NCBI GenBank assembly: GCA_900315935.1
Contig: ONBB01000012.1
Span: forward strand, 116,290 to 180,289
DNA: 64,000 nt
Origin: an uncultured Bacteroidales bacterium
GTDB taxonomy: Bacteria; Bacteroidota; Bacteroidia; Bacteroidales; P3
Direction: 5' to 3'
The stretch's first letter is position 1. Each line of letters opens with the position of its first letter. Below, piece by piece: positions 605 through 63,588 of the stretch. The notes beneath the pieces were generated by a model. The model searched no databases. It saw only the letters and a list, made by a program, of their open reading frames with translations, and was not told the origin of the DNA. A program made the translations under genes and the position numbers.

Positions 605-1297
605 ATGAAAAAGACATTTTTTATAGCCGCCCTGTTTTCAATTTTCAATTTTCAATTTTCAATTTGCACTCTCCATGCCCAGTATGACGAGCAGGGCCAC
701 CAGCAATATGCCTCGTGGGGCTTCGCCGTGGGTCCCAACACCTCGTCGTACATCATGCGGGTGGACCCCCTGCTGCGCGACACGCTGATTGCCGACACCG
801 TGCTCAACTCGCTCCCCGCCACCGGCCTCAGCCTCGGCCTCTTCCTCGACTACCACATCACCGCCGAGTGGGCCCTGCAGTTCAACGGCCAGTTCGCCAT
901 GGAGCAGTCCCTGCTGCGCTACGCCGACCACCACAGCCACATCCTCACCCTCGGCAGCGACGTGGGCGTCGCCGTGCGCTACCGCACCCCCTGGCGCCAG
1001 GGCCACTTCTACTGCGCCTTCGGCCCATACGTCCATTTCGTGCTCTACTCCGGCGCCACCGAGGGCATCAACCTCTACCGCCGCCAGATCTACACCGACC
1101 CCGCCACCGGCACCTCGCGCTTCGCCATGAGCGACATCCACGCCGGCCTCAACCTCACCCTCGGCTACGAGTTCCGTAACCGCTGGCTTGTGCAGCTGGA
1201 AAACAAGTTCGGCGTAACCGACATCCTCCACCTCAAGACCCCGGGCACCTACGTCTACCCCTACAAAATCACCATCGGCGTCGGCTGCCGCTTCTAG
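605..1297 (+). CDS. Small outer-membrane beta-barrel protein with signal peptide
   Basis: 230-residue protein starting at the ATG at 605 (MKKTFF); an ATG 12 bases upstream would only add MLPY. Residues 1 to about 26 form a signal peptide ending LHAQ, and the hydrophobic core is written by four perfect TTTTCAA heptamers (635-662), read as FNFQFSI. The mature part alternates polar and hydrophobic residues with aromatic girdles and a final strand ending VGCRF, as in Bacteroidales outer-membrane beta-barrel proteins of OmpW/PorT size. A central segment (GLSLGLFLDYHITAEWALQFNGQ) looks like a barrel hairpin. Exact family and function are not recognised. Confidence 0.7.
   Translation: MKKTFFIAALFSIFNFQFSICTLHAQYDEQGHQQYASWGFAVGPNTSSYIMRVDPLLRDTLIADTVLNSLPATGLSLGLFLDYHITAEWALQFNGQFAMEQSLLRYADHHSHILTLGSDVGVAVRYRTPWRQGHFYCAFGPYVHFVLYSGATEGINLYRRQIYTDPATGTSRFAMSDIHAGLNLTLGYEFRNRWLVQLENKFGVTDILHLKTPGTYVYPYKITIGVGCRF
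635..665 (+). repeat. Heptamer array TTTTCAA x4 inside a signal peptide
   Basis: Perfect TTTTCAA units at 635-641, 642-648, 649-655 and 656-662, then TTT. Translated in frame it supplies the hydrophobic core of the signal peptide of the gene at 605. The same unit recurs at 45332-45359 and 51327-51354, again in coding sequence. Confidence 0.95.
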
Positions 1298-1318
1298 CCT
1301 CCTCCTCAAAAGACCGCC

Positions 1319-1477
1319 AGACTGCCCATCCGCCGCCACCCGCATCCGCAATACAACAAATACCTCGACCCCAAGAAATTCGCCACTTTCACCATCGATG
1401 GGGGCAATGTGGTATGGGGACGTAACTGGGATATGATATTTCCCATCGAGCAACTCCGCACCGGATATATCGACTGA
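1319..1477 (+). pseudogene. DUF2442 C-terminal fragment (fossil)
   Basis: An open frame without a start codon, from 1319 to the TGA at 1475-1477, reads as a DUF2442 C-terminus: a KYLDPKKFATFTIDGG stretch, then VVWGRNWDM and FPIEQL before the stop. This matches the usual end of DUF2442 proteins (a Phe-containing hinge, an I-x-W-x-x-x-x-D core strand). The N-terminal half is missing, and the frame runs directly out of the end of the upstream barrel gene. An intact DUF2442 gene paired with DUF4160 lies at 46042-46550, and a similar hairpin plus TTGnCCA/TCGGAAAAA promoter element follows both. Confidence 0.6.
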
Positions 1478-1500
1478 CTATCATCACCCTATATAACTCA

Positions 1501-1873: not shown

Positions 1874-3552
1874 ATGAAAAGAAGACTACTCTTTTTCGCC
1901 CTCCTGCTGGCCGCCCTGCCGTGAGGGGGCACTTGCCATCCCTGCTAGCGTAACTTTTAGCGGCACCACTTATGCTGTAACCAGCATCATGGATGCAGCC
2001 TTTTGGGAATGCCGTGGTCTGACATCAGTAACCATCCCCAGCTCGATAACCACCATCGGGAATGAGATATTCTTTGGTTGCGATAGCCTGACGTCAATAC
2101 ATGTGGAGTCAGGGAATACGGTGTATGACAGCCGCAATGGTTGCAACGCCATCATTGAAACATCCACCAACACGCTTATTGCAGGTTGCAAAAATACGAT
2201 GATTCCCAACACTATTGCCATTATTGGAAGACGAGCGTTCTGTGGTTGCATCAGCCTGACATTAATAGCTATCCCCAATTCGGTTATCTCCATTGAGTAT
2301 GAGGCGTTCGCTTATTGCGACGGCCTGACGTCAATAACCATCCCCAGCTCGGTAACTTCTATCGACAACTCATTCAGAGGTTGCAGAGACTTGGCTTCAA
2401 TTGTGGTGGAGGCAGGGAATACGGTGTATGACAGTCGCAACGGTTGCAACGCCATCATCGAGACTGCCACAAACAGGCTTATTGCTGGCTATCGAGACTG
2501 CCACAAACAGGCTTATTGCTGGCTGCAAGAATACTGTTATTCCCAACACGGTAACTACCATCGGGGAAATAGCATTCTCTGGTTGCAGCGGCTTGATGTC
2601 AATAACCATTCCCAATTCAGTTATCGCCATTGAGTATGAAGCGTTCTGTGGTTGTAGCGGCTTGACATCGGTAACCATTCCTAACTCGGTAGCCGTGATA
2701 GGGCATTATGCGTTTGCTTTTTGCAGAGGTCTGACGTCGGTTACCATTGGGAACTCGGTGCACAACATTGGAGACCGTGCGTTCGCTTATTGCGACGGCC
2801 TGACGTCATTAACTATTCCCAGTTCTACAACCTTTATCGGTCAACTCGCATTCGGTAATTGCAGCGGTCTGGCATCAATACAGGTAGAGGCTGGGAATGC
2901 GGTGTATGACAGCCGTAATAGTTGCAACGCCATCATCGAGACTGCCACAAACAGGCTTATTGCTGGCTGCAAGAATACTGTTATTCCCAACACGGTAACT
3001 ACCATCGGAGAAGCTGCATTCTATGATTGCAGCGGTTTGTCGTCTGTAACGATTCCAAACTCGGTAACTACCATCGGGGAAGAAGCATTCGAAAATTGCC
3101 GCAGCCTGACATCGGTAACCATCGGCGGTGCCGTGGATTCCATAGGGAGTATGGCGTTTGCTTGGTGTGATAATTTGGCAGAATTGCATTGCAAGGCCGC
3201 TGTGCCGCCGGCATTGGGAGTAGGGGTTTTTTATCTCATTGGCCAAGAAATCCCCGTCTATGTGCCCTGCGATGCGGCGGACACCTACCGCGCCGCAGCA
3301 GGGTGGAATGAGTTCACCAACATCCAGGAGGACTGCATGGAAGGCATCGGCGATGTGGACGGAAGGGACGGCCTGCAGGTATGGAGTGTTGACGGAAGCA
3401 TTCACGTATCGGGTTTTGCCGAGGGCATGGAGGTTCGCGTGTATGACATCACTGGGCGCCGCGTCGGCACGAGCGGCCTGCGCAGTGGGGTCTATTTGGT
3501 CAATGTGGGCACGCTGCCAGCCAGGAAGGTGGTGGTGATTGTTAAGGGTTAG
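1874..3552 (+). pseudogene. BspA-like leucine-rich-repeat surface protein with T9SS sorting domain; two frame lesions
   Basis: Three reading-frame pieces make one gene. ATG 1874 gives a signal peptide (MKRRLLFFALLLAALP) that hits TGA at 1922. Skipping one base restores the frame used from 1923 onward (GALAIPASVTF). LRR_5/BspA repeats follow, with recurring VTIPNSV, AFxGC and GLTSIxI modules and intervening VYDSRNGCNAIIET ATNRLIAGC blocks. A 34-base tandem duplication at 2457-2524 shifts the frame again, and the rest continues to 3552. The last ~70 residues (LQVWSVDGSIHVSG ... VRVYDITGRRV ... VYLVNVG) are a type IX secretion C-terminal sorting domain, so the intact protein would be exported to the surface. 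Either lesion could be a sequencing or assembly error; the duplication could also be a reversible switch. Confidence 0.8.
2457..2524 (+). repeat. Perfect 34-bp tandem duplication inside the LRR gene
   Basis: Bases 2457-2490 and 2491-2524 are identical (begin ATCGAGACTGCC, end TTGCTGGCT). 34 is not a multiple of three, so two copies break the frame and one copy restores it. The same unit occurs once, unduplicated, in the paralogous repeat at about 2935-2968. Confidence 0.95.
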
Positions 3553-3702: not shown

Positions 3703-4185
3703 TCAAAGCATCGCCACGAGGCGCTCCAGGTACTGGCGGTCGGTGTCGTCGAAGGTGGCCAGCTCGCGGCTGTCGATGTCAAGCACGGCCACCACTTCGT
3801 CGCCCTCGAACACCGGCACCACTATCTCGCTGCGGCTCTCGCTGCTGCAGGCTATGTGGCCGGGGAACAGCTCCACGTCGGGCACCACCACCGTGCGCCG
3901 CTCCTTCCACGCCGTGCCGCACACGCCGCGGCCGTAGCCGATGTGCATGCAGGCCAGCGGGCCTTGGAAGGGGCCCAGGACTAGTTCTGAGTTGCCGGTT
4001 GCGGCAGCCGACCTCATAACTCCTAACTCATAATTCATAACTCTGTAAAACCCTGTCCACCAGAAGCCGAACTCGCTGTGCAGCAGTGCGCAGACGTTGG
4101 CCATCTTGGCTATCATGTCCGCCTCGCCTTCGCAGAGGGCCTTCACCTGCGGCAGCAGGGCTATATATCTGTCTTCCTTTGTCAT
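3703..4185 (-). CDS. msrC: Free methionine-(R)-sulfoxide reductase (GAF-domain fRMsr)
   Basis: 160-residue GAF-domain protein that reduces free Met-R-sulfoxide in the cytoplasm. The three cysteines expected for the fRMsr catalytic relay are present: Cys79 and Cys89 in CMHIGYGRGVCG and Cys113 in HIACSSESRSEI. The FWWTGFYR segment and the VLDIDS end of the GAF core are also typical. Residues about 49-66 (NYELGVMRSAAATGN) are an extra loop where homologues have a tight turn before ELVLGPFQGP; its DNA contains four CTCnTAA heptamers (4013-4040). The frame stays open and all catalytic residues remain, so the enzyme is probably functional. It stands alone, separated from the glycosidase operon by a repeat-rich gap. 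Confidence 0.9.
   Translation of the reverse strand: MTKEDRYIALLPQVKALCEGEADMIAKMANVCALLHSEFGFWWTGFYRVMNYELGVMRSAAATGNSELVLGPFQGPLACMHIGYGRGVCGTAWKERRTVVVPDVELFPGHIACSSESRSEIVVPVFEGDEVVAVLDIDSRELATFDDTDRQYLERLVAML
4013..4040. repeat. Heptamer array CTCnTAA x4 within the fRMsr gene
   Basis: CTCATAA, CTCCTAA, CTCATAA and TTCATAA run without gaps at 4013-4040. Read on the minus strand in frame they encode MNYELGVM. The same family forms the junctions at 20434-20468 and 44786-44834. Confidence 0.93.
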
Positions 4186-19281: not shown

Positions 19282-20439
19282 ATGAATATCAGAAAGATAC
19301 TTCTTCCAATCCCCCTCTTCGGCGCATGGCTGCTGGCTTCATGTTTCGGCATGTCGGAACTTTCGGTCGACCTCGGCGAAGCCATCGAGCTGATGAATGC
19401 CCGCGAGCAGGGTGCCTCCGAAGAGGAGGTGCAGCCGCTCAACGTCATCCTTATCGTGGGCGACGGCATGGGTGTGCCGCAGGTCTACGCCTCGGTGGTG
19501 GCCGAGCGCGAGAACAACTCCGCCTTCCTGCGCTTCCCCTACACGGGCTTTTCGCGCACCTATTCGCGTAACAGGTACCGCACCGACTCCTCGGCCGGCG
19601 GCACCGCGCTGACCACCGGCCACAAGGTGGACAACTACCACGTCAACTGGGGCCCCGACTCGGCGCGCTACGCCACCATCTTCGACGACGCTGTGGCTGC
19701 CGGCATGAGCACCGGCTTCGTGGTAACCTCCTCCGTGCTCGACGCCACACCCGCCGCCACCTACGGCCACGTGCCTTATAGGAAGATGTTCGACACACTG
19801 AGCCTGCAACTGTCGCAGTGTCAGCACAGTGTGATGGTGGGCGGCGGCCGCAAGTATTTTCTTCCCGAAAACCGCAAGGACGGCCTCGCGCCGCTCGACA
19901 CCCTGGCACGCCGCGGCTACACGGTGGTCGGCACTCTCGACAGCCTCAACCGCTTCGCCGGCGACCGCCTCGTGGGGCTCCTCTACGACGGCGACCCGCT
20001 CACCGAGCCCTCGCGCGGCGACATGCTCACCCAGGCCACCAAGAAGGCCATCGCCATGCTCAGCCGCAACCCCAAGGGCTTCGCGCTGATGGTCGAGGGG
20101 TCGCAAATCGACTGGGCCTGCCACAACAACGACTCGGCCTACCTGCGCGCCGAGCTGGCCGACTTCGAGCAGATGCTGCACGCCGTGCTCGACTTCGCCC
20201 AGCGCGACGGGCGCACCCTGGTGGTCGTTACCGCCGACCACGAGACCGGCGGCCTCACCCTGCCCGACGGCGACATCCAGCAGGGTATCAACAACGTGCG
20301 CTTCCATTGGGACAACCACACTGGCTGCATGGTGCCCGTCTTCGCCCTCGGCCCCGGCGCCCACAACTTCTCCGGCATCCAGGAGAACACCGACATCCCC
20401 ATGAAAATCCGCCTCTTGATGGGGATTGGGGAGTTGTGA
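19282..20439 (+). CDS. Alkaline phosphatase lipoprotein (PhoA superfamily)
   Basis: 385 residues. Signal peptide with lipobox (LLASCFG, Cys about 20). The catalytic and metal motifs are present: GDGMGVPQVYAS (metal Asp), the nucleophile region DSSAGGTALTTGHK, SQIDWACHNND, and VTADHETGGL near the end. It hydrolyses phosphomonoesters in the periplasm, releasing phosphate. The last residues GIGEL and the TGA stop are written by the first unit of a TTAnGAG heptamer array (20434-20468). It has its own promoter; the downstream apt gene is 40 bases away and may be read through. Confidence 0.9.
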   Translation: MNIRKILLPIPLFGAWLLASCFGMSELSVDLGEAIELMNAREQGASEEEVQPLNVILIVGDGMGVPQVYASVVAERENNSAFLRFPYTGFSRTYSRNRYRTDSSAGGTALTTGHKVDNYHVNWGPDSARYATIFDDAVAAGMSTGFVVTSSVLDATPAATYGHVPYRKMFDTLSLQLSQCQHSVMVGGGRKYFLPENRKDGLAPLDTLARRGYTVVGTLDSLNRFAGDRLVGLLYDGDPLTEPSRGDMLTQATKKAIAMLSRNPKGFALMVEGSQIDWACHNNDSAYLRAELADFEQMLHAVLDFAQRDGRTLVVVTADHETGGLTLPDGDIQQGINNVRFHWDNHTGCMVPVFALGPGAHNFSGIQENTDIPMKIRLLMGIGEL

Positions 20440-20468
20440 GTTAAGAGTTATGAGTTAGGAGTTTTGAG
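20434..20468. repeat. Heptamer array TTAnGAG x5 at a gene junction
   Basis: TTGTGAG, TTAAGAG, TTATGAG, TTAGGAG and TTTTGAG run at 20434-20468. The first unit contains the stop codon of the phosphatase; the array ends 11 bases before the ATG of apt. It is the reverse complement of the CTCnTAA family. Confidence 0.93.
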
Positions 20469-20479
20469 TTTTTAATGTT

Positions 20480-21540: not shown

Positions 21541-21550
21541 GGTTATTTTG

Positions 21551-21594
21551 AGGTTTAAGGTTTAGGGTTTTAAGGTTTAGGGGTTTAGGGTTAT
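21551..21594. repeat. GGTTTAG/GGTTTAA tandem array overlapping a gene end
   Basis: GGTTTAA, GGTTTAG, GGTTTTAA, GGTTTAG, GGGTTTAG and GGTTATG follow each other. On the minus strand the units supply the last codons (TLNP) and the TAA of the GNAT-HD gene. Confidence 0.88.
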
Positions 21595-22752: not shown

Positions 22753-22818
22753 ATCTGAATGGATTCCTGCAATTTTAGTGCCACACTTGGCATGAATATT
22801 GCAGACGGTGATAATGTT

Positions 22819-25288: not shown

Positions 25289-25305
25289 AGAGAATGTGGG
25301 AATTC

Positions 25306-25345
25306 GTTAATGTGTTAATGCGTTAGTGTGTTAGTGTGTTAATGT
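25306..25345. repeat. Octamer array GTTAATGT x5 overlapping the Bro-N gene end
   Basis: GTTAATGT, GTTAATGC, GTTAGTGT, GTTAGTGT and GTTAATGT run at 25306-25345. Read on the minus strand, the last unit gives TH and TAA, the C-terminus and stop of the gene at 25339. Confidence 0.92.
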
Positions 25346-25785
25346 GTGATGCTATTGTCGCTATAGGTGAACCGACGATTAAGCGAGTATAGAGCCAGGC
25401 TTGCTTGAGCTTTATAGAGCGAAGAGGAGGTCGGCGAAGCCAACCAATCGAGACAGTCCGTCGTTTTCTTGCTGGGAATGAGTTTTGCCAAAGCTGTTAT
25501 ATCATCCTGGGCCAAACAATCTGTGGCGTATTTCTTTCCGTCGGCAGCGGTAAGTTTCAGTTGACTACATTTTGTAGTCAACTCATTGTTGTCTTTCTTT
25601 TGCCTTGTTTTTAGTACACTCCAATACTTTCGTGGATTAGGGATTTCTGTGATGTCTGCCACAATATCCACTATCGAATGCTGCGGCTGGCGAGCTTGAT
25701 GAGCCAACCACCAATGGTTGTGTTCCTCGTCCCATACGGCACGCACCTGATGGTCTTTATAGAATCGTATGGATATCTTGCTCAT
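25339..25785 (-). CDS. Bro-N-like (phage antirepressor type) protein
   Basis: 148 residues from ATG 25785 (MSKISIRFYKDHQ). The order FYKDHQVRAVWDEEHNHWWLA, VDIVADITEIPNPRKYWSVLKTRQ, LTTKCSQLKLTAADGKKYATD is the Bro-N fold found in viral, phage and island-borne DNA-binding proteins. Compared with the usual WWFSVVDVV core there is an extra HQARQPQHS segment, and the C-terminal ~30 residues (LASPTSSSLYKAQASLAL...) look unrelated to the family, so the gene may be partly remodelled. AT-rich, and at the downstream edge of the defence-type island. Its upstream region shares a ~50-base repeat with the RhuM gene. Confidence 0.7.
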   Translation of the reverse strand: MSKISIRFYKDHQVRAVWDEEHNHWWLAHQARQPQHSIVDIVADITEIPNPRKYWSVLKTRQKKDNNELTTKCSQLKLTAADGKKYATDCLAQDDITALAKLIPSKKTTDCLDWLASPTSSSLYKAQASLALYSLNRRFTYSDNSITH

Positions 25786-26939: not shown

Positions 26940-26961
26940 TTAAAATGGGAAATTGCAGCTA

Positions 26962-28377: not shown

Positions 28378-28379
28378 TA

Positions 28380-30674: not shown

Positions 30675-30678
30675 ATCT

Positions 30679-31125: not shown

Positions 31126-31128
31126 AAT

Positions 31129-35950: not shown

Positions 35951-35960
35951 ATTCTTGATT

Positions 35961-36052
35961 GTGTTATTGTGTTAGTGCGTTATTGTGTTAGTGCTACGCA
36001 ATCGTGCTGCGTCAGCCGCTTACGCATTTACGCATTCACACATTCAAACATT
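35961..36052. repeat. Two octamer arrays filling the etfB-etfA gap
   Basis: GTGTTATT, GTGTTAGT, GCGTTATT and GTGTTAGT at 35961-35992; TACGCATT, TACGCATT, CACACATT and CAAACATT at 36021-36052. The last unit supplies the TAA of etfB (read on the minus strand). Confidence 0.9.
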
Positions 36053-36836: not shown

Positions 36837-36843
36837 TTTTCTT

Positions 36844-36888
36844 TCTGAATATTCTGATTACTCTGAGTGTTCGGAGTATTCTGATTTA
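36844..36888. repeat. Nonamer array, unit TCTGAnTAT-like x5, in the bcd-etfB gap
   Basis: TCTGAATAT, TCTGATTAC, TCTGAGTGT, TCGGAGTAT and TCTGATTTA run without gaps at 36844-36888, almost the whole 52-base gap between the two genes. Confidence 0.88.
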
Positions 36889-43682: not shown

Positions 43683-44792
43683 ATGATACGCGTTATCACG
43701 GACATGGAAGACAAGCATCTCTACAGCAACTTCGACTACGACTCCGCCCTCTCGGTGCAGCAGGGCGTCAAGCAACCCGACCAGGTGAGCCTCAACTATA
43801 TAGAGCGTGTGCGCGCCAAGCGTGCACAGGAACCCTCGGTCGAGGAGTTGGTGGCCGGCATCCGCCATGCCGACCGCACCCTGTTGAGCCGCGCCATCAC
43901 GCTGGTGGAGAGTTCGTTGCACGCCCACCAGAAGAAGGCGCAGGAGGTCATCGAGCGCTGCCTTCCCTACAGCGGCAAGTCGGTGCGCCTCGGCATCACC
44001 GGCGTGCCCGGTGCTGGCAAGAGCACCACCATCGAGGCGCTGGGCAAGATGCTGACCGCTCACAATCACAAAGTTGCCGTCCTCGCCATCGACCCCTCCA
44101 GCGAGCGTTCCAAGGGCTCCATCCTGGGCGACAAGACCCGCATGGAGGAGCTTTCCGTGGACCCCAACGCCTTCATCCGCCCTAGCCCCTCGGCCGGTTC
44201 GCTCGGCGGCGTGGCGCGCAAGACGCGCGAGATCATCACCCTCTGCGAGGCGGCCGGTTTCGATGTGGTAATCGTTGAGACTGTGGGCGTTGGACAGAGC
44301 GAGGTGGCCGCCCACTCGATGGTCGACTTCTTCCTCCTGCTCCAGCTGGCCAACACCGGCGACGAGCTGCAGGGCATCAAGCGCGGCATCATGGAGATGG
44401 CCGACATGATTGCCATCAACAAGTGCGAGCTCGACATGCAGCGCTCCGAGCTGGCCGCCGCCCAGTTCCGCAACGCTCTCCACCTTTTCCCCATGCCCGA
44501 GAGCGGCTGGACCGTCAAGGTGTCCCTCTGCTCGGCCTACACCAAGCAGGGCCTCGAGGAGCTGTGGAACGACGTGATGGACTATGTTACCTTCACCAAG
44601 GGCAACGGATATTTCTACCACAAGCGCCAGCAGCAGAGCCTGCGCATCATGACCGAGGCCATCGAGAGTGGCCTGCGCGACCGCTTCTACAACACCCCCG
44701 GCATCGAAGAGCGCATGAAAGAACTTGAACAGCAGATACTTGAAAACAAACTTACCCCCTACGCCGCCGCCGACCAACTGTTAGACTCTTAA
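43683..44792 (+). CDS. meaB: MeaB/ArgK family GTPase (methylmalonyl-CoA mutase chaperone)
   Basis: 369 residues. P-loop GTPase of the ArgK/MeaB class: GVPGAGKSTTIEALGKML, VLAIDPSSERSKGSILGDKTRM, AFIRPSPSAGSLGGVARKTRE and VIVETVGVGQSEVAAHSMVD, with the NKCE-like MIAINKCELDM. It protects and gates methylmalonyl-CoA mutase and its B12 cofactor. The mutase is not in the window. The stop codon TAA (44790-44792) is the end of the first unit of a CTCnTAA heptamer array. Confidence 0.95.
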   Translation: MIRVITDMEDKHLYSNFDYDSALSVQQGVKQPDQVSLNYIERVRAKRAQEPSVEELVAGIRHADRTLLSRAITLVESSLHAHQKKAQEVIERCLPYSGKSVRLGITGVPGAGKSTTIEALGKMLTAHNHKVAVLAIDPSSERSKGSILGDKTRMEELSVDPNAFIRPSPSAGSLGGVARKTREIITLCEAAGFDVVIVETVGVGQSEVAAHSMVDFFLLLQLANTGDELQGIKRGIMEMADMIAINKCELDMQRSELAAAQFRNALHLFPMPESGWTVKVSLCSAYTKQGLEELWNDVMDYVTFTKGNGYFYHKRQQQSLRIMTEAIESGLRDRFYNTPGIEERMKELEQQILENKLTPYAAADQLLDS

Positions 44793-44834
44793 CTCCTAAC
44801 TCCTAACTCCTAACTCTTAACTCATAACTCGTAA
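44786..44834. repeat. Heptamer array CTCnTAA x7 at the meaB-hemW junction
   Basis: CTCTTAA, CTCCTAA three times, CTCTTAA, CTCATAA and CTCGTAA run at 44786-44834. The first unit contains the meaB stop; hemW's first codon lies 6 bases after the last unit, so the whole junction is repeat. Confidence 0.95.
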
Positions 44835-44840
44835 CTCAAT

Positions 44841-45956
44841 TTGATTTACCTCCACGTTCCTTTCTGCCACCGCAAGTGCACCTACTGCGCCTTCTACTCC
44901 AAGCCTGCGCGCGGGGTGGATGCCTTTGGCCGCTACGTCAATGCCCTGCTGGCGGAAATGGAGCAGCGCAAGGGCGAGCAGCCGCATTCGATTCGGACTG
45001 TCTATTTCGGCGGCGGTACCCCGTCGATACTGCCCTTGGCGGAGCTTACACGCATCGTCGACGGGCTGCGGCGCTGCTTCGACCTCTCGCAGGTGGAGGA
45101 GTTCACGCTCGAGGCCAACCCCGAGGACCTCACGCCCGACTACCTGGCCGGCCTCCGAGCGCTCGGTTTCAACCGCTTGAGTGTCGGCATCCAGAGCCTT
45201 GACGACAGCCAGCTGCGCCTCCTCAATCGCCGCCACACCGCCCGCCAGGCACTCGATGCCTTGGAGAACGCCCACCGTGCAGGCTTCCATAACGTCAGCG
45301 CCGATTTCATCTACGGCCTTCCTCATGGGAATTTTCAATTCTCAATTTTCAATTTCCAATTAATCACCCACATCTCCGCCTACGCCCTCACCGTCGAGTC
45401 TGGCACCGCCCTGGACCTGCAGGTGCGGCAGGGTAGGGTGGTGCTCCCCGGCGAGGAAGAGGTCGTGCGCCAGTATCATGCACTGCAACAGCAGTTTGGG
45501 GAGGCTGGCTTCCGGCAGTACGAGGTCAGCAACTTCGCCCGTCCGGGCTACCATTCGCGCCACAACAGTCGCTACTGGGACCGCACCCCCTACCTCGGCC
45601 TCGGGCCCGCCGCCCACAGCTTCGACGGCCGTCGCCGCCGTTGGAACAGCCCCATGGAGGTGGAAAGTTGTATGTGGAAAGTGGAGAGCGAAGAGGTTCT
45701 CACCGCGGCCGATGCTGTCAACGAACTCCTTATGACCGCCCTCCGCACCACCCGCGGCCTCCTCCTCGCCGACGTCCCCGAGGCATACCGGGCAGGGCTC
45801 CTCCAGAAGCTGCAGCCCTACGTAGCCTGCGGCTGGCTCTACGTTGAAGAATCCCACCAGCCCTCACTCCTCACCCCTCACTCCTCACTAATCTATTGCC
45901 CCACTCCCGAGGGTCTCCTCCACGCCGACGGCATGGCCGCCGCGCTCTTTGTCTGA
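44841..45956 (+). CDS. hemW: HemW-like radical SAM protein carrying three heptamer insertions
   Basis: 371 residues from TTG 44841 (no better start is present; the repeat array abuts it). Radical SAM motif C9-x3-C13-x2-C16 in FCHRKCTYC, then FGGGTPSIL, EANPEDLTPDYLAGLRALGFNRLSVGIQS and HISAYALTVE; the C-terminal region keeps YEVSNFARPGYHSRHN and GLGPAAHSF. HemW is a heme chaperone-type enzyme. Three segments are encoded by repeats: NFQFSIFNFQL (TTTTCAA family, 45332-45359), VESCMWKVESEE (GTGGAAA family, 45660-45687) and PSLLTPHSSL (CCTCACT family, 45862-45889). The first replaces the helix before HISAYAL. All insertions keep the frame, so the protein may still work. Confidence 0.88.
   Translation: MIYLHVPFCHRKCTYCAFYSKPARGVDAFGRYVNALLAEMEQRKGEQPHSIRTVYFGGGTPSILPLAELTRIVDGLRRCFDLSQVEEFTLEANPEDLTPDYLAGLRALGFNRLSVGIQSLDDSQLRLLNRRHTARQALDALENAHRAGFHNVSADFIYGLPHGNFQFSIFNFQLITHISAYALTVESGTALDLQVRQGRVVLPGEEEVVRQYHALQQQFGEAGFRQYEVSNFARPGYHSRHNSRYWDRTPYLGLGPAAHSFDGRRRRWNSPMEVESCMWKVESEEVLTAADAVNELLMTALRTTRGLLLADVPEAYRAGLLQKLQPYVACGWLYVEESHQPSLLTPHSSLIYCPTPEGLLHADGMAAALFV
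45332..45359. repeat. Heptamer array TTTTCAA-type x4 in hemW
   Basis: TTTTCAA, TTCTCAA, TTTTCAA and TTTCCAA; the same family as at 635-662 and 51327-51354. Confidence 0.93.
45660..45687. repeat. Heptamer array GTGGAAA-type x4 in hemW
   Basis: GTGGAAA, GTTGTAT, GTGGAAA and GTGGAGA; the same family as the arms at 22052-22131 and 51227-51254. Confidence 0.88.
45862..45889. repeat. Heptamer array CCTCACT-type x4 in hemW
   Basis: CCTCACT, CCTCACC, CCTCACT and CCTCACT; the same family as at 60501-60535 and 63152-63200. Confidence 0.95.
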
Positions 45957-51271: not shown

Positions 51272-52099
51272 ATGAAGCACCTGTCGAAAAAGTTGAAAAT
51301 TGTTATGCTTGCGGCTGCAGGCATGCTTTTCAATTTTCAGTTTTCAATTTCCAATTCCCTCTGGGCCCAGGACAGCGTGCTCACCGTTCGCCTCGACGGC
51401 GGGGTGAGTTTTGACCTGGTGTGGGTCGAGGGCGGCACCTTTACCATGGGCAGCAACCAGGCGCGCGGCGTGAAGTACAACTACGAGTCGGCCCGCCCCG
51501 AGCACCGCGTGTCGGTGGGCGGCTACTTCATCGCCCGCTGCGAGGTAACGCAGGGCCTCTACCGTGCCGTCATGGGCGAGAACCCCTCCAAGTTCACCGG
51601 CACCGACAGCCTGCCGGTGGAGAGCGTCTCGTGGGCCGATGCGCAGCAGTTTGCCGTGATGCTCAGCCAGATGACCGGCCACCGCTTCCGCCTCCCCACC
51701 GAGGCCGAGTGGGAATATGCCGCCCGCGGCGGCCACCGTTCGCGCCGCCAGCCCTTCCCGGGTTCGGACCGCGCCGGCCTCGACCGTGCAGGCTGGTACT
51801 GCGTCAACAGCAAAGGCGCCACCCATCCTGTGGCCCGGCTGCAGCCCAACGAGCTGGGACTCTACGACATGGCCGGCAACGTGGCCGAATGGTGCCTCGA
51901 CTGGGCCGGCGAATACGCGGCCGACCCGCAGGACAACCCCCGCGGCCCCGCCGAGGGCGAGCACCGTGTGCTGCGCGGCGGCCACTACAACAGCACCTCC
52001 TCGGCTTGCACCGTCTACGACCGCGGCTGGTACATACCCTCCGGACGCTACGAATTGTTTGGCTTCAGACTTGTAATGGAACCCGACCATGCAGATTAA
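51272..52099 (+). CDS. FGE/SUMF1-type (formylglycine-generating-like) exported protein
   Basis: 275 residues from ATG 51272 (MKHLSKKLK). The signal-peptide core FNFQFSISNS is written by TTTTCAA-type heptamers (51327-51354) and ends LWAQ. The FGE-sulfatase fold follows: WVEGGTFTMGSNQARG, CEVTQGLYRAVMGENPSKF, LPVESVSWADAQQFAVMLS, RFRLPTEAEWEYAARGG, LGLYDMAGNVAEWCLDWAGEY and a final RGWYIPSGRYELFGFRLVME. Without the copper-binding Cys pair of true FGE it probably lacks formylglycine activity; many Bacteroidales copies are surface or adaptor proteins. It overlaps hpt by 11 bases. Confidence 0.88.
   Translation: MKHLSKKLKIVMLAAAGMLFNFQFSISNSLWAQDSVLTVRLDGGVSFDLVWVEGGTFTMGSNQARGVKYNYESARPEHRVSVGGYFIARCEVTQGLYRAVMGENPSKFTGTDSLPVESVSWADAQQFAVMLSQMTGHRFRLPTEAEWEYAARGGHRSRRQPFPGSDRAGLDRAGWYCVNSKGATHPVARLQPNELGLYDMAGNVAEWCLDWAGEYAADPQDNPRGPAEGEHRVLRGGHYNSTSSACTVYDRGWYIPSGRYELFGFRLVMEPDHAD
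51327..51354. repeat. Heptamer array TTTTCAA-type x4 in a signal peptide
   Basis: TTTTCAA, TTTTCAG, TTTTCAA and TTTCCAA, in frame in the hydrophobic core of the FGE-like protein's signal peptide. Confidence 0.93.
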
Positions 52100-57654: not shown

Positions 57655-57695
57655 CCTATTCCCCTAGAGATCCCCTACCGTTCCCCTAGGGAACC
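57655..57695. repeat. Dispersed CCCCTA-family repeat, copy 3
   Basis: CCTATTCCCCTAGAGATCCC followed by CTACCGTTCCCCTAGGG; the fullest copy of the family, in the gap between the GT2 gene and ychF, and the reverse complement of 19079-19102 in its core. Confidence 0.85.
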
Positions 57696-58855: not shown

Positions 58856-61714
58856 ATGAAGATAAAAGGAGATAGCATGCTTCGCTTGCGGAAGATAAAG
58901 GACAAATGCCGTGGTATTGTCCCCTATCTTCCCCTATCTCCCTCTATCTTCCGCTATCTCCCTTTAACTCCCTCTATCTGCCCCTATCTCCCACTGCTCC
59001 TTCTACTTCTTGTAGCCTCTTCCTGCTCCACAAAAAAGGCCAAGTGGACCAATATCCAGTACCACAACATCACCACCCATTACAACGTCTGGTGGAATGG
59101 CAACGAGAGCATCAAGGAGGGGCGCCAGAAGCTTTACGCCTCGGTTGTCGACGACTATACCCAGATGCTCCCTGTCGAACCCCTCGGCACCGACGAGAAC
59201 GCCCGCTCGGTCTATCCCGAAATGGACCGCGCCATCGAGAAGGGTGTCAAGGGCATCAAGAAGCATAGCATCTTCGTCAAGGGGCGCGAACATGTGCCCT
59301 ACATCAAGGAGTGCTACCTGCTGACCGCCTATGCCTCCTTCTACAAGCGCGACTACGCCTCGACCGTCAACACCTGCAATATCCTCATCTCCCAGTTTCA
59401 GGGCACCCGTGCCGGCGACGAGGGCGCCGTGCTCCTGGCCCGTTGCATGACCATGGAGAAACGCTACGCCGAGGCCGAGGCCACCCTCGACCTGCTTGTG
59501 CAGCAACTGGCCAAGAGCCAGTTCACCCGCTCGCAGCGCGACAAGCTCTATATGGCCATGGTCGAGGCCACCCTCCCGCAGGGAAAGTACAAGAAGGCCG
59601 TCGAGTACATCCACCAGGCCGTCGATGCCTCCTCCGACCGCCAGGCCAAGGCGCGTCTCACCTTCATCCTGGCCCAGATCTATCGCCAGCTGGACCGCCG
59701 CTCGGTGGCCGCCAAGTACTACCATGAGGTGCTGCGCTACTCGCCACCCTACGTCATGGAGTTCAACGCCAAGCTCGGCGAAGCCTCTTGCGCCGACCTG
59801 CAGCATGCCGACATCGGCCGCCTCGAGCGCCAGCTCGACGACCTGCTCAACGACAAGAAGAACGAGGAGTACCGCGACCAAATCTATTTCGCCAAGGGCG
59901 AGATGTACCTCGGTATCAAGCAGCCCCGCGAAGCCTGCGACAACTACCGCCTCTCCGTGGCCGCCGCCACCGCCAACAAGGCCCAGAAGGCACTCTCGTC
60001 GCTCCGCATGGCCGAGGTGCAGTACGACCAGTTCCAGAACTACGACCTATCCCAAGTCTACTACGACACCGCCATGCAGTGCATCCAGCCCGACTATCCC
60101 CGCTACGACCACATTCGCCGTCGCCACGAGATGCTCACCGAGCTGGTCTCCTATACCCGCGTCTACACCCGCAACGACAGCCTCCTCCTGGTGGCCGCCA
60201 TGCCCGAGGACGAGCGCGCCAAGCTTATCAACGACCGCATCGAGGAGTTGAAGCGCCGCGAGGCCGAGGCGCGCGAGCGTGAGCTGTTGGCCGAGATACT
60301 GGGCGAGAGCAAGGCGCAGCAGAACACCCTCACCGGCGACTGGTACTTCTACAACCCCACCACCGTGCAGAAAGGCAAGGAGACCTTCCGCCAGCGTTGG
60401 GGCATGCGTGGCCTGGAGGACCTCTGGTGCCTCTCCAGCAAGACACTCATGTCCATCGCCTTGGACGAAGATAACCCCGACGACAGTGGTGCGTCCGATA
60501 CCTCACTCCTCACTCCTAATTCCTCCCTCCTCACTCAAGCCGGCAACCCCGACGACCCCCACAGTCCCGCCTACTACCTCAAGGACCTCCCCACTTCGCA
60601 GCAGCAGCTCGACTCCATCGACTCGCTCACCTCCATCTGCCTGCTCAATGCCGGTTATATCTACTACGACGGCGTGGGCAATGAGCCCCGCGCCCTGGAG
60701 TGCTACCACCGCCTGGCCGCCGACTACACGTCGCATCCCGAGGTGGTGCAGGCGTTCTACATGCTCTACCGCATCTACGACCGACAAGGCAACACGCCGC
60801 AGGCCAACTACTACCGCGACATGGTCCTCATGGGCTTCCCCGACAGCGACTTCGCCAACCTCATCCGCGACAACGAGTACTACAAGGAGCTCCTCCGCCG
60901 CGACCGCCGCATCGAGGAGGACTACGAGGCCGTCTATGCGCAGTACGCTTCGCGCCGCTACTCCGGTGTGCTGCGTTCGGTCGACGAGGCCGAGGAGGTC
61001 TATGCCGGCATGCCCCAGCTGGGTCGCTTCCGTTACTGGAAAGCCCTTGCCCAGGCGCGCATGGGCGACCGCCCCGAGGCTGTGGCTACCCTCGAGACCC
61101 TCCTCTCGCAGGCTCCGCAGGGCGACAGCATCATCCCGCTGGCGCAAGCCCAGCTCGAGCTGTTGCGCGACGACACAGCCTTCGCCGCCCTGACCTCCAG
61201 CGAGACCATCACCGACCTCGACGAGCAGCGCGTCCGTCGCCAGGTGCTCCCGCAGGATACCACTGCCGCCGCCACCGTCTCGCCCACCACACCCCGCACC
61301 TCACAGCAGGACGAGACCCTGCCGCCGGAGTCGCAGGTCTACCGCTTCCGCGAGAACCAACAATATTACGTCGTCATCCTCGTCAACGACCGGAATGTAC
61401 GCGCCACCGAGCTGCAGTACAAGGTGGCCGCCTTCAACAGCCAGTACTATTCCAATTCGGGCTACAAGGTCAACACAACCCTCTTTACCGACACCACCCA
61501 GCTCATCACCATCCACCGCTTCATGTCGGCCGCCGAGGCCATGAACTACTGGCGCCACCTGCAGCAGGACGAGAGCCCCCTCAAGCAGCTGGCTGACAGC
61601 GACCACCAGGAGTTCGCCATCTCCACCCAGAACTACGCCACCTTCTACAACCGCAAGAACCCGGCGGCCTACCTGCCTTTCTTCCGCAAATATTACGTCA
61701 ATAAATACAAATAA
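58856..61714 (+). CDS. porW: Type IX secretion lipoprotein PorW/SprE (TPR)
   Basis: 952 residues. Lipobox LLLLLLVASSCSTKKAKW; the signal region contains 10-base repeats (58921-58990), read as LSPSIFRYLPLTPSICPYLP. The mature start KKAKWTNIQYHNITTHYNVWWNGNESIKEGRQKLY and SVYPEMDRAIEKGVKGIKKHSIFVKGREHVPYIKECYLLTAYASFYKRDYASTVNTC are the conserved opening of SprE/PorW. TPR repeats fill the middle, and the C-terminus (VNDRNVRATELQYKVAAFNSQYYSNSGYKVNTTLF...FYNRKNPAAYLPFFRKYY) resembles the PorW end. SprE/PorW links the T9SS ring to the membrane machinery. Residues about 550-562 (SLLTPNSSLLTQ) are a CCTCACT-repeat insertion. Confidence 0.85.
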   Translation: MKIKGDSMLRLRKIKDKCRGIVPYLPLSPSIFRYLPLTPSICPYLPLLLLLLVASSCSTKKAKWTNIQYHNITTHYNVWWNGNESIKEGRQKLYASVVDDYTQMLPVEPLGTDENARSVYPEMDRAIEKGVKGIKKHSIFVKGREHVPYIKECYLLTAYASFYKRDYASTVNTCNILISQFQGTRAGDEGAVLLARCMTMEKRYAEAEATLDLLVQQLAKSQFTRSQRDKLYMAMVEATLPQGKYKKAVEYIHQAVDASSDRQAKARLTFILAQIYRQLDRRSVAAKYYHEVLRYSPPYVMEFNAKLGEASCADLQHADIGRLERQLDDLLNDKKNEEYRDQIYFAKGEMYLGIKQPREACDNYRLSVAAATANKAQKALSSLRMAEVQYDQFQNYDLSQVYYDTAMQCIQPDYPRYDHIRRRHEMLTELVSYTRVYTRNDSLLLVAAMPEDERAKLINDRIEELKRREAEARERELLAEILGESKAQQNTLTGDWYFYNPTTVQKGKETFRQRWGMRGLEDLWCLSSKTLMSIALDEDNPDDSGASDTSLLTPNSSLLTQAGNPDDPHSPAYYLKDLPTSQQQLDSIDSLTSICLLNAGYIYYDGVGNEPRALECYHRLAADYTSHPEVVQAFYMLYRIYDRQGNTPQANYYRDMVLMGFPDSDFANLIRDNEYYKELLRRDRRIEEDYEAVYAQYASRRYSGVLRSVDEAEEVYAGMPQLGRFRYWKALAQARMGDRPEAVATLETLLSQAPQGDSIIPLAQAQLELLRDDTAFAALTSSETITDLDEQRVRRQVLPQDTTAAATVSPTTPRTSQQDETLPPESQVYRFRENQQYYVVILVNDRNVRATELQYKVAAFNSQYYSNSGYKVNTTLFTDTTQLITIHRFMSAAEAMNYWRHLQQDESPLKQLADSDHQEFAISTQNYATFYNRKNPAAYLPFFRKYYVNKYK
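58921..58990. repeat. 10-base array CCCCTATCTT-like x7 in the PorW signal peptide
   Basis: Seven 10-base units (CCCCTATCTT, CCCCTATCTC, CCTCTATCTT, CCGCTATCTC, CCTTTAACTC, CCTCTATCTG, CCCCTATCTC). Three units give ten residues, so the peptide repeats as PYLPLSPSIF / RYLPLTPSIC / PYLP. Reversed GAAGATA words precede it at 58848-58910. Confidence 0.9.
60501..60535. repeat. Heptamer array CCTCACT-type x5 inside PorW
   Basis: CCTCACT, CCTCACT, CCTAATT, CCTCCCT and CCTCACT; reads SLLTPNSSLLT, an insertion between TPR segments. Confidence 0.92.
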
Positions 61715-61738
61715 TCAATACATTAACAATTTTAAATT

Positions 61739-62158
61739 ATGGCTAGAACAATGGAAGTAGAAAACAGCTCCATCAACATCATCAACAACGGCACCCTCAT
61801 CAAGGGCGACATCACCGCCAGCGGCGATTTCCGTCTCGACGGCACCCTCGAGGGCAACATCCAGCTCGACGGCAAGCTCGTCGTCGGCGACACCGGTGTG
61901 GTCAATGGCAACATCCTCTGCCAGAACGCCAACATCATCGGCTCCGTCAACGGCAACCTCTCCGTCAAGGAACTCCTCTCGCTCCACGCCACCGCCCGTG
62001 TCCGCGGCGACATCCTTATCAACAAGCTCTCCATCGAGCCCGGCGCCGTCTTCACCGGCAAGTGCCGCATGCTCGACGAGGTGCGCCAGCAGCAGGAAGC
62101 CGAGGCTCGTGCCTCCGCCGAGGCCGCCCGCGCCGCCGAAGAGCACACCGAAGAGTAA
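61739..62158 (+). CDS. Bactofilin-family cytoskeletal protein
   Basis: 139 residues. Bactofilin core: IINNGTLIKGDITASGDFRLDGTLEGNIQLDGKLVVGDTGVVNGNILCQNANIIGSVNGNLSVKELLSLHATARVRGDILINKLSIEPGAVFTGKCRM, the right-handed beta-helix of DUF583/polymer-forming cytoskeletal proteins. The C-terminus is a charged Ala/Glu tail. Its stop overlaps the start of the next gene (TAATG). Confidence 0.95.
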   Translation: MARTMEVENSSINIINNGTLIKGDITASGDFRLDGTLEGNIQLDGKLVVGDTGVVNGNILCQNANIIGSVNGNLSVKELLSLHATARVRGDILINKLSIEPGAVFTGKCRMLDEVRQQQEAEARASAEAARAAEEHTEE

Positions 62159-63588
62159 TGCAGCTCCTGCAGCAGCTCTTTGAGCAATGGGCAGGCGAGG
62201 CATGCACCGAGTGCCTCGCCTTGGGAGCCAATGGCTCCAACCGCCGCTACTACCGCCTCTGCGGGGCCACCCGCCGCTGTATCGGCACCATAGGCGACGA
62301 CCTCCGCGAGAACGAGGCTTTCTTCGCCTGCACCCGCCATTTTATGGCGAAGGGTATCGCCGTGCCCCAGCTCTACGCCGTCAGCGACGACCACCGACGC
62401 TACCTCCAGCAGGACCTCGGCGACCAGTCGCTCTATGGCCTCCTGCTCGACAAGCGGCGGCAGGGTAGGGGATTCGATGCCGAAATGCTGGCGCTCTACC
62501 GCCAGGCCCTTGCCGACCTGGCCGCCATTCAGCAGGCCGGAGCCGACCTCGATTTCTCCGTGGCCTACCCGCGCCCCGCCTTCGACCGCCAGTCCATCCT
62601 CTGGGACCTCAATTATTTCAAGTACTTCTTCCTCAAGCTTGGACACATCGACTTCGATGAGCAGCTCCTCGAGGACGACTTCCACCACCTGGCCGACTTC
62701 CTCCTTGAAGCCGACTGCGACTACTTCCTCTACCGCGACTTCAATCCACGCAATATTATGGTATCGGAAGGGCTTTACTACATTGACTACCAAGGGGGTA
62801 GGAGGGGGGCGGCGCAGTACGACGTGGCCTCGCTGCTCTACTCCGCCAAGAGCGACCTGCCCGAGCCCCTGCGTCTCGAATTGCTGAACCATTACCTGGC
62901 CGTGCGCGGCATCAATGGCGACGACAAGCGGCAGTGGATGAGCCACTTCTGGGGCTATGTCCTCGTCCGCATCCTCCAGACCCTCGGTGCTTACGGCTAC
63001 CGCGGCCTCTACGAGCGCAAGCCCTACTTCATCGAGAGCATCCCGCTTGCCCTCAACAACTTGCGCTCCCTCCTCGAGAACCATCCCATCCCCATCGCCC
63101 TCCTCCCCGAACTCAACCGTGCCCTGCAGTCGGTAGTGGAAAGCGGAAATTCCTCACCCCTCACCCCTCACTCCTCACTCCTCGCTCCTCACTCCTCACT
63201 CACCGTTACCGTCCTCTCCTTCAGTTACAAGCAGGGCCTTCCCGAGGACCCCTCCGGCAACGGCGGTGGCTTCATCTTCGACTGCCGCGCCCTGCCCAAC
63301 CCCGGCCGCTACCCCGAGTACAAGGCCATCACAGGCCGCGACCGCCCCGTGATAGAATTCCTGCAGAAAGAACCTGCCGTCGACCAGTTCCTCGGCCATG
63401 CCAAGGCGCTTGTGGGACAGAGTGTTGAGAAATACATCGAGCGCCGTTTCACCCACCTCCAGGTGGCTTTCGGCTGCACCGGCGGACAGCACCGCTCCGT
63501 CTACTGCGCCGAGCAGGTGGCCCGCTGGCTTTCAGATACCTACCCCGCCTGCACCGTCAGTCTCCGACACCGCGAGCAGGACAGGTAG
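62158..63588 (+). CDS. Aminoglycoside-phosphotransferase-like kinase fused to a RapZ C-terminal domain
   Basis: 476 residues from ATG 62158. Residues 1 to about 320: APH-type kinase with GANGSNRRYYRL loop, QQDLGDQSLY, the Brenner-like catalytic segment YRDFNPRNIM and the metal-binding IDYQGG. Residues about 345-476: RapZ C-terminal domain (VLSFSYKQGLPEDPSGNGGGFIFDCRALPNPG, TGRDRPVIEFLQ, VEKYIERRFTHLQVAFGCTGGQHRSVYCAEQV). Linker VESGNSSPLTPHSSLLAPHSSL is a heptamer array (63152-63200). AmgK-type kinases use MurNAc-like sugars, and RapZ senses GlcN6P precursors, so a cell-wall amino-sugar role is plausible; anmK elsewhere in the window fits. Substrate not shown. Confidence 0.85.
   Translation: MQLLQQLFEQWAGEACTECLALGANGSNRRYYRLCGATRRCIGTIGDDLRENEAFFACTRHFMAKGIAVPQLYAVSDDHRRYLQQDLGDQSLYGLLLDKRRQGRGFDAEMLALYRQALADLAAIQQAGADLDFSVAYPRPAFDRQSILWDLNYFKYFFLKLGHIDFDEQLLEDDFHHLADFLLEADCDYFLYRDFNPRNIMVSEGLYYIDYQGGRRGAAQYDVASLLYSAKSDLPEPLRLELLNHYLAVRGINGDDKRQWMSHFWGYVLVRILQTLGAYGYRGLYERKPYFIESIPLALNNLRSLLENHPIPIALLPELNRALQSVVESGNSSPLTPHSSLLAPHSSLTVTVLSFSYKQGLPEDPSGNGGGFIFDCRALPNPGRYPEYKAITGRDRPVIEFLQKEPAVDQFLGHAKALVGQSVEKYIERRFTHLQVAFGCTGGQHRSVYCAEQVARWLSDTYPACTVSLRHREQDR
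63152..63200. repeat. Heptamer array CCTCACT-type x7 in a domain linker
   Basis: CCTCACC x2, CCTCACT x2, CCTCGCT and CCTCACT x2, starting 2 bases after a GTGGAAA-like unit; exactly between the kinase and RapZ domains. Confidence 0.95.

What the first reader, a model, noticed from the sequence alone, without database searches (positions are those of the whole stretch)
635..63200. Multiple unrelated families of 7-10 base tandem repeats, used repeatedly as coding sequence
At least eight repeat families with fixed unit lengths are present: TTTTCAA (7), CTCnTAA/TTAnGAG (7), CCTCACT (7), GTGGAAA (7), TAGTTAAG (8), GTTAATGT/GTGTTATT/TACGCATT (8), TCTGAnTAT (9), CCCCTATCTT (10), and a GGTTTAG mixture. 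Each is a short array of 3-9 units. Most recur at several loci, which rules out independent slippage from one ancestral site. They sit in signal peptides (605, 51272, 58856), enzyme loops (3703, 23271, 44841), domain linkers (21577, 62158), stop codons (20434, 21577, 25339, 36051, 44786) and operon gaps (35961, 36844). The pattern is that of a family of dispersed elements copied with selection for frame, not random decay. I know of no described mechanism for it in this group.
Basis: partly seen in the sequence, partly recalled or inferred. Interest (0 to 1): 0.9.

Follow-up and report, generated by a model that had tools for sequence, protein, structure and literature searches.

The report
Gene-embedded short repeat arrays, gut Bacteroidales
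A group of uncultured gut bacteria has its genome studded with short repeated DNA words, often forming hairpins and often read as part of proteins; words and sites change between sister species in a way that simple copying slips do not fully explain.

Summary
The window holds 16 arrays of period 7-11 bp (fifth-order simulations: mean 0.05, max 1 of 40), nine wholly inside genes. The trait is shared by related gut Bacteroidales: 62 heptamer arrays in 839 kb of this genome, 118 in 749 kb of its sister, two in 247 kb of other families. Periods 7, 8, 9 and 11 have their own word sets. Heptamer use differs between sisters (0 of 5000 permutations). Orthologous sites are mostly empty or hold other words. 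Coding sites keep frame: 19 of 20, noncoding 8 of 18. In HemW, array-coded loops stand where relatives have a 21-residue segment. Many arrays form hairpins; spacers share a GC-rich core (20 of 81, random mean 1.0).

Frame selection and dispersal hold. No RVT_1 reverse transcriptase was found; heptamer arrays seldom share flanks. Best reading, partly inferred: slippage plus hairpin template switching, with copying between arrays; selection keeps in-frame outcomes. SbcCD loss may help but is not required. Period-11 arrays are a separate intergenic dispersed element.

The parts
515..588 (.). 8-bp array AGTAGTTA, 9 copies, intergenic upstream of the OMP gene 605-1297
635..665 (+). 7-bp array TTTTCAA coding FSIFNFQFSI near the N-terminus (signal-peptide-like) of an outer-membrane beta-barrel protein (605-1297)
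4013..4043 (-). 7-bp array CTCATAA coding RVMNYELGVMR inside a GAF-domain protein (3703-4185); GCGGCAGC next to it
20420..20472 (+). 7-bp array GAGTTAT holding the stop codon of an alkaline phosphatase-family gene (19282-20439); the orthologous site in the sister holds CAATTTT units
21547..21592 (-). GGTTTAG/TTTAAGG array at the 3' end of an HD-domain gene (ORF 21577-22830; called 21577-22752); codes the last residues
22052..22135 (-). inverted pair of 7-bp arrays (GTGGAAA ... TTCCCAC) around a spacer with GGGCGGCAGC, coding a segment inside the HD domain match; RNA fold z -3.2
25293..25347 (.). 8-bp array GTTAATGT, intergenic or at a doubtful ORF end
35958..36052 (.). inverted pair of 8-bp arrays (ATTGTGTT ... 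TTACGCAT) around core GCTACGCAATCGTGCTGCGTCAGC, between ETF alpha and beta genes; RNA fold z -1.6; the sister has a hairpin of other units here (z -4.1)
36843..36884 (.). 9-bp array TTCTGAATA in the gap between ETF beta and acyl-CoA dehydrogenase genes
44785..44837 (+). 7-bp array AACTCCT holding the stop codon of MeaB and the gap to HemW; two units (14 bp) longer than in the sister
45330..45361 (+). 7-bp array TTTTCAA coding NFQFSIFNFQL in a HemW-like radical SAM protein, where distant relatives have a 21-residue segment
45862..45889 (+). 7-bp array CCTCACT coding PSLLTPHSSL in a C-terminal loop of the same protein; 84 bp longer in the sister, clear array-coded insert in 4 of 31 aligned relatives
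51327..51356 (+). 7-bp array TTTTCAA near the N-terminus of an FGE-sulfatase-domain protein
57660..57689 (.). degenerate 11-bp repeat TCCCCTAGAGA with CCCCTACCG, intergenic; resembles the genome's dispersed period-11 element
58920..58992 (+). 10-bp array CCCCTATCTT coding the N-terminal, signal-like region of a TPR protein
60501..60536 (+). 7-bp array CCTCACT coding TSLLTPNSSLLTQ in the same TPR protein
63151..63201 (+). 7-bp array CCTCACT coding SSPLTPHSSLLAPHSSL between the APH and RapZ C-terminal domains; 18 bp length difference in the sister

Best explanation
This is a lineage-wide, fast-turning population of short tandem arrays (7, 8, 9 and 11 bp), many of them arms of hairpins. Shown: the arrays, their period-specific words, species-specific heptamer use, different words or no array at many orthologous sites, frame keeping in genes, hairpin sites whose arms carry other words in other species, and no RVT_1 or Ku match. 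Inferred: they are made and rewritten by ordinary DNA synthesis going wrong. Slippage duplicates and homogenises units within an arm; template switching between the arms of a hairpin copies a changed unit to the other arm; now and then a 3' end primes on an array elsewhere, so words spread between loci and drift to species-specific sets. Loss of the hairpin nuclease SbcCD in many relatives may let hairpins persist, but is not required. Selection removes frame-breaking outcomes, so genes keep arrays in N-terminal regions, loops, linkers and stop regions. The period-11 arrays are a distinct class: an intergenic, gene-oriented, dispersed element family that is abundant in only one or two species at a time.
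For: Period spectrum: p7 136, p8 42, p9 28, p10 4, p11 62 in 1.36 Mb of 80 related loci, none of period 7 or more in one third-order simulation. Sister word tables (p7) differ, chi2 89.4, 0 of 5000 permutations. Orthologous coding sites, reciprocal views merged: same word 6, same period other word 9, other period 4, no array 14 of 33. Coding length differences are 0 mod 3 in 19 of 20 sites with tight flanks (13 of 14 non-zero) and 31 of 33 with all sites; noncoding 8 of 18 and 16 of 41. Hairpin sites whose arms carry other words: ETF gap (this genome z -1.6, sister z -4.1), L179:6402 site (z -6.3, sister z -6.7) and gap 1 near L178:2296 (94-97 bp in four genomes with three words; z -2.2, -0.8, -2.3, -3.2). 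Inverted partners exceed the reversed control in 80 related loci: p7 19 v 1 of 136, p8 14 v 2 of 42, p9 5 v 0 of 28, p11 32 v 3 of 62. Spacer core GCGNCAGC 20 of 81 v mean 1.0, max 5 of 200 draws. SbcD over cut-off in 0 of the 14 genus genomes with HemW identity of 64% or more (own genome included), 8 of the other 11. Array-free loci: 0 of 20 without SbcD, 6 of 15 with it. MutS1 over cut-off in 39 of 41.
Against: SbcD carriers L038, L078 and L080 are rich in arrays, period-8 density is higher with SbcD than without (63 v 27 per Mb; p7 54 v 159), and L021, whose HemW is 70% identical to the window's, has SbcD: loss is not required, and the correlation is not corrected for descent. Only 3 of 14 non-zero coding length differences (84, 42, 7) are whole heptamers, so simple slippage explains few changes. 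Evidence for copying between loci is weak: aperiodic 16-mers shared within this genome 18 of 81 v 8 of 81 with the sister, but 16 of 91 v 12 of 91 the other way round. Period-specific vocabularies (CTAG in 26 of 62 p9 arrays, 1 of 370 p7) are not predicted by plain slippage. Some 'empty' sister sites look like losses: gap 1 is filled in G395 as in G000. In this genome and its sister period-11 arrays have almost no inverted partner (0 of 27, 1 of 19), the complement-only control is high (p8 here 7 v 8 of 21; p7 here 7 v 12 of 62; related loci 9, 5 and 9 for p7, p8, p11), and flanks swapped between arrays give 5 of 62 and 4 of 21 here. Spacer counts include orthologous sites and a few stretches held twice (L010/L244, L022/L246).
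Confidence: 0.45

Rival explanations
1. Ordinary simple-sequence-repeat slippage alone: chance seeds of two units expand and contract, heptamers being favoured by the polymerase footprint, and selection tolerates some in genes.
For: Heptamers are the commonest period above 6, as reported for many bacteria (passage citing an earlier survey in PMC4679880). Some sites differ by whole units: 44785 by 14 bp, 45862 by 84 bp, L136:2070 by 18 bp with period 9.
Against: Words are shared across unrelated genes in a species-specific way. Most coding length changes are not multiples of the unit. Each period has its own vocabulary. Hairpin arms carry other words in other species and spacers share a core.
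Confidence: 0.25
2. Mobile hairpin elements of the MITE, REP or Rickettsia-palindrome kind, moved in trans, whose arms later acquire tandem units.
For: GC-rich core in spacers. Period-11 pairs with one word share flanks in 63 of 78 here and 4 of 30 in the sister (other-word pairs 73 of 273 and 0 of 141). The period-11 word has 135 exact, partly overlapping matches here, 36 in the sister, one each in two others, 0 in the other 55 of 59 genus genomes. Y1 transposase domains over cut-off: 3 here, 6 in the sister. Same-word p7 pairs share flanks somewhat more often than other-word pairs.
Against: Period-7 arrays still rarely share flanks (3 of 130, 32 of 629). Y1 domains were not found in G008 and G009, which have 7 and 8 arrays in 40 kb, although G008 is 88% complete. 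The core is not enriched next to noncoding p7 arrays in general (5 of 65 v mean 3.0, max 7), though it is next to coding ones (14 of 115 v mean 5.0, max 9).
Confidence: 0.2
3. Functional binding-site or RNA-structure arrays kept by selection, whose word follows a fast-evolving binding protein.
For: Period-11 arrays are never wholly inside a gene (0 of 46, two at a gene boundary), and those with the main word between tandem genes keep one orientation (10 of 10 and 5 of 5). Period-specific words. Hairpins of about 94 bp at one site with different words. Strong folds at some sites (z -13.0, -7.3, -6.9, -6.7, -6.3).
Against: 115 of 180 period-7 arrays are inside genes. Many sites are empty in the sister. 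No Rfam family was matched at the hairpins of the window, L021, L178 and L163 (the hairpins of L078 and L179 were not scanned). Some hairpins fold weakly (window ETF gap z -1.6, L277 gap z -0.8).
Confidence: 0.15
4. Reverse-transcriptase or end-joining synthesis writes the arrays.
For: At several displayed sites arrays stand in place of a few bases with sharp borders in otherwise similar DNA (14 sites chosen by me), which resembles filler synthesis at breaks.
Against: RVT_1 not found in G000 or G001 and found in only 5 of 16 genus genomes searched; Ku in 0 of 25. A family outside these models could have been missed.
Confidence: 0.05
5. Assembly artefact of metagenome-assembled genomes.
For: The genomes used are draft assemblies, and tandem repeats can be miscounted.
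Against: The same HemW array appears at the same place in assemblies whose titles come from separate projects (RUG, RGIG and UBA); reading frames are intact.
Confidence: 0.02

Closest known systems
Bacterial heptanucleotide repeats (TAACTGA of Beggiatoaceae; cyanobacterial STRR, the latter recalled)
   Same: Short head-to-tail units, 7 bp most common, patchy distribution; TAACTGA arrays also reported in a few Bacteroidetes (passages of PMC4679880)
   Different: There one word, mostly just upstream of starts in the main genome; here dozens of words, 115 of 180 p7 arrays in genes, several period classes, hairpin pairs, word turnover between sisters
Borg tandem repeats (PMC9879509)
   Same: Genome-wide, fast-evolving arrays in genes and between genes, frame kept (passages read)
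   Different: Borg units in ORFs are divisible by three and nearly always perfect; here coding units of 7, 8 and 10 bp, degenerate, with frame kept through net site length
Rickettsia palindromic elements
   Same: Palindromic DNA inserted in frame into unrelated genes (passage of review PMC10969869)
   Different: RPEs are element families of about 150 bp with a conserved peptide; here no conserved sequence beyond the word and sometimes a GC core
BrickBuilt MITE of Porphyromonas gingivalis (PMC4596501)
   Same: Same order (recalled); leader plus tandem units, intergenic, with promoter elements (passages read); resembles the period-11 class
   Different: 23-nt unit, 19 copies in one strain, always intergenic; the period-11 class has an 11-bp unit and more copies
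Coding palindromes of nematomorph mitochondria (PMC6649704)
   Same: Inverted repeats in genes whose arms evolve together; template switching proposed by the authors (passages read)
   Different: No tandem units or shared words are mentioned in the passages I saw; organelle genomes

Membership tests
Simple sequence repeats / heptamer arrays | Head-to-tail short units far above chance, 7 bp commonest | tested here: met
Simple sequence repeats / heptamer arrays | Variation mainly by whole units at fixed sites | tested here: not met
   3 of 14 non-zero coding differences are multiples of 7; 6 of 33 coding sites keep the same word
Borg-type tandem repeats | Units in ORFs divisible by three and perfect | tested here: not met
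   115 coding arrays of period 7 in two genomes, many degenerate
Rickettsia palindromic elements | In-frame insertion into unrelated genes | tested here: met
Rickettsia palindromic elements | Conserved element sequence shared by copies | tested here: not met
   p7 same-word pairs sharing flank: 3 of 130 and 32 of 629
MITE with minisatellite (period-11 class) | Dispersed intergenic copies sharing sequence beyond the unit | tested here: met
   63 of 78 same-word pairs in G000, weaker in G001 (4 of 30); 0 of 46 wholly inside genes
MITE with minisatellite (period-11 class) | Terminal inverted repeats and target-site duplications | not tested
   no polarised insertions of this class were aligned base by base
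REP / RAYT elements | Y1 (HUH) transposase in genomes that carry the repeats | tested here: inconclusive
   present in G000 and G001, no match in G006, G008, G009, G014 of 16 genus genomes
Reverse-transcriptase systems (retron, DGR, telomerase-like) | RVT_1 domain in the genome | tested here: not met
   no match in G000 and G001
Ku-dependent end joining filler | Ku | tested here: not met
   0 of 25 genomes

The most novel reading that the evidence does not exclude
A dedicated but unknown array-writing process exists in this genus: it writes 7-, 8-, 9- and 11-bp words, each period with its own grammar (p8 close to AACRYATT, p9 with CTAG or TCAGA, p11 only between genes), often as a hairpin around a GC-rich core, renews the words genome-wide within the lifetime of a species, and so supplies genes with new in-frame peptide segments.
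Probability: 0.15. Interest if true: 0.95.

Novelty: new variant of a known kind. Interest (0 to 1): 0.74.

Why it matters
It is a natural case where tandem arrays whose unit is not a multiple of three are repeatedly used as protein sequence, even in a conserved enzyme family (HemW), so protein segments are swapped by repeat turnover rather than by point mutation. It also gives a tractable test of how dispersed repeats come to share words within a bacterial species and what hairpin nucleases normally prevent.

Tried and rejected
Rejected: one ancestral site decaying (words and sites differ between relatives); RVT_1 reverse transcriptase; Ku end joining; loss of mismatch repair (MutS1 over cut-off in 39 of 41); known RNA families (one search found tRNA and a cobalamin riboswitch only, in 4 sources); a broad trait of the class (TTTTCAA x3 in 10 of 296 sampled genomes including this one). 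Tested with mixed result: SbcCD loss, Y1 transposase, copying between loci, core motif next to single arrays. The core pattern alone is not specific: 1458 sites v 1171 in simulated sequence; with a flanking stem 13 v 1 of 1454. The gap comparison found both gaps in 9 of 20 loci; for the other 11 my anchors returned neither gap and they were not counted. The frame count with tight flanks left out 13 of 33 coding and 23 of 41 noncoding sites; both versions are given. Paper searches for the array peptides found nothing, and in the listings shown I saw no description of this in rumen or gut Bacteroidales; the library lacks most subscription papers. Period 5 and 6 arrays were barely above the word-shuffle null although period 6 is also more frequent than simulated (37 v 3 here, 49 v 5 in the sister); they, period 10 and periods above 11 were left out. 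Gene calls come from a codon-usage script of my own, not an established program. One fold (L275:1-20) had wrong coordinates and is meaningless.
Full report
Setting. The window lies in contig C25 of a 2.29 Mb draft genome in 31 contigs. The 80 best MeaB relatives carry titles of uncultured Bacteroidales or Bacteroidetes and one Candidatus Colimorpha; many titles name ruminant or horse gut (that RUG stands for rumen genomes is recalled). The nearest relative held is G001/L009, 91.4% identical over the 9.8 kb that aligned.

Is it real? Yes. Tandem Repeats Finder lists the arrays. My own detector finds 16 of period 7-11 in the window; 40 fifth-order Markov simulations average 0.05 and never exceed 1; nine of the 16 are wholly inside genes. 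In 839 kb of this genome there are 62 period-7, 21 period-8, 12 period-9, 2 period-10 and 27 period-11 arrays; in 749 kb of the sister 118, 2, 11, 8 and 19; one third-order simulation of each gives none of period 7 or more. In 247 kb from other families of the order there are two of period 7 and one of period 8 (simulated: one of period 7), and in 45 kb of another genus of the same family none of period 7 or more. These control samples are small and poorer in G+C. Period 6 is also in excess (37 and 49) but was not followed.

Period classes and words. In 1.36 Mb of 80 related loci the periods are 7 (136), 8 (42), 9 (28), 10 (4), 11 (62). With rotations and strands aligned, words of periods 7, 8, 9 and 11 are more alike than six sets of letter-shuffled words; periods 5 and 6 barely so. 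Shared descent of sites may add to the likeness. CTAG occurs in 26 of 62 period-9 arrays and 1 of 370 period-7 arrays; the 370 use 97 distinct words.

Species-specific words. Period-7 word use differs between the two sisters (n = 180, 0 of 5000 permutations as extreme). AAAATTC is in 1 array here and 18 in the sister; ACCACTG 0 and 10; ACCTCCG 0 and 8; period-8 arrays 21 and 2. The period-11 word CCCCTACCRTTCCCCTACC has 135 exact matches here (neighbouring matches can lie in one array), 36 in the sister, one each in two other genomes and none in the other 55 of 59 genus genomes; the reversed control has none.

Turnover at fixed sites. Of 122 arrays here 50, and of 150 in the sister 46, had an orthologous site in the other sample. 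After merging reciprocal views, the 33 coding sites divide into same word 6, same period other word 9, other period 4, no array 14; the 41 noncoding sites into 8, 7, 8 and 18. The difference in site length is a multiple of three in 19 of 20 coding sites with tight flanks (13 of 14 with non-zero difference; 31 of 33 with all), against 8 of 18 noncoding (16 of 41 with all). Only 84, 42 and 7 among those 14 are whole heptamers. In most of the 14 sites that I chose to display the borders are sharp and a few neighbouring bases differ as well. Polarity is known for few: the gap near L178:2296 is filled alike in G000 and G395 and short in G001, which suggests loss in G001.

Hairpins. Arrays have an inverted partner within 120 bp more often than the reversed control: in the related loci 19 v 1 of 136 (p7), 14 v 2 of 42 (p8), 5 v 0 of 28 (p9), 32 v 3 of 62 (p11). 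The complement-only control is higher (9, 5, 0 and 9), and in this genome and its sister period-11 arrays have almost none (0 of 27, 1 of 19). At the ETF gap of the window the sister has a hairpin of quite different units (z -1.6 here, -4.1 in the sister). The L179:6402 site behaves alike (z -6.3 and -6.7). At gap 1 near L178:2296 four genomes have 94-97 bp with three different words, folding with z -2.2, -0.8, -2.3 and -3.2. Spacers of 81 p7/p8 pairs contain GCGNCAGC in 20, against a mean of 1.0 and maximum of 5 in 200 random draws, though some of the 81 are orthologues and two pairs of stretches overlap.

Coding use. In this genome 36 of 62 and in the sister 79 of 118 period-7 arrays are inside genes, below the coding share of 86% and 84%; period-11 arrays in 0 of 46. 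HemW is the clearest case. Outgroups and distant members keep a 21-residue segment after the GL motif; 21 of 69 parsed sequences (some genomes fetched twice) hold a detectable array there, of period 7 or 9, and others hold segments of other length without one. A second, clearly array-coded insert extends a C-terminal loop in G000, G001, L031 and L037 of 31 aligned. AlphaFold2 gives mean pLDDT 86.3, with residues 161-170 at 62 and 341-350 at 69, both outside helices and strands; the best fold match is E. coli HemN (1olt). Cysteines 8, 12 and 15 are invariant in the 31 sequences. That the ancestral segment is a helix was not tested.

Machinery. RVT_1 was not found in G000 or G001, Ku in none of 25. 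MutS1 is over cut-off in 39 of 41. SbcD is over cut-off in none of the 14 genus genomes with HemW identity of 64% or more (own included; four have weak sub-threshold matches) and in 8 of the other 11. Against this, L021 with HemW 70% identical has it. SbcC is over its cut-off in none of 25 genomes; among 16 genus genomes matches stronger than 1e-20 occur only in three SbcD carriers. Among 35 genomes behind loci 15 have SbcD. Period-7 density is 54 per Mb in these and 159 in the 20 without, but period-8 density is 63 and 27; 6 of 15 against 0 of 20 loci are array-free; three SbcD carriers are rich. Y1 transposase domains occur in both sisters and were not found in G006, G008, G009 and G014 of the 16 genus genomes.

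Reading. The facts favour a DNA-synthesis process acting on hairpins and arrays, with selection for frame, over a classic mobile element for periods 7-9. The spread of words between loci is the least explained step. Period 11 behaves as a dispersed intergenic element: shared flanks in 63 of 78 same-word pairs in G000 and, between tandem genes, constant orientation of arrays with the main word, 10 of 10 and 5 of 5. The readings offered are not exclusive, so their odds may add to more than one.

Noticed in passing
window 26000-32000: Low-GC island (0.38-0.40 against 0.57 overall) holding several minus-strand ORFs including 28380-30674; probably acquired DNA.
   Followed up: no
window 1989-3552: Two overlapping ORFs in different frames, a perfect 34-bp tandem duplication at 2457-2524 and 69-bp repeats that look like BspA-type leucine-rich repeats (recalled label).
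   Followed up: no
L078:7940-8045, L074:19335-19421, L037:16608-16688: Near-perfect palindromes whose arms are period-11 arrays with loops of only a few bases, words differing by species; RNA fold z -13.0 for the first.
   Followed up: partly
L163:3060-3190, L198:16400-16510: Nested hairpins with period-9 arms (AAATCTTGT) and GC-rich outer and inner stems, a possible separate element family.
   Followed up: partly
L282, gap 1 (orthologue of L178:2296): The 426-bp gap appears to hold a small ORF, possibly a four-helix-bundle protein (by eye, recalled resemblance), followed by an ATTTTCA array, instead of a hairpin.
   Followed up: no
G021 and G038: No MutS1 match over cut-off although G021 is 98% complete.
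   Followed up: no
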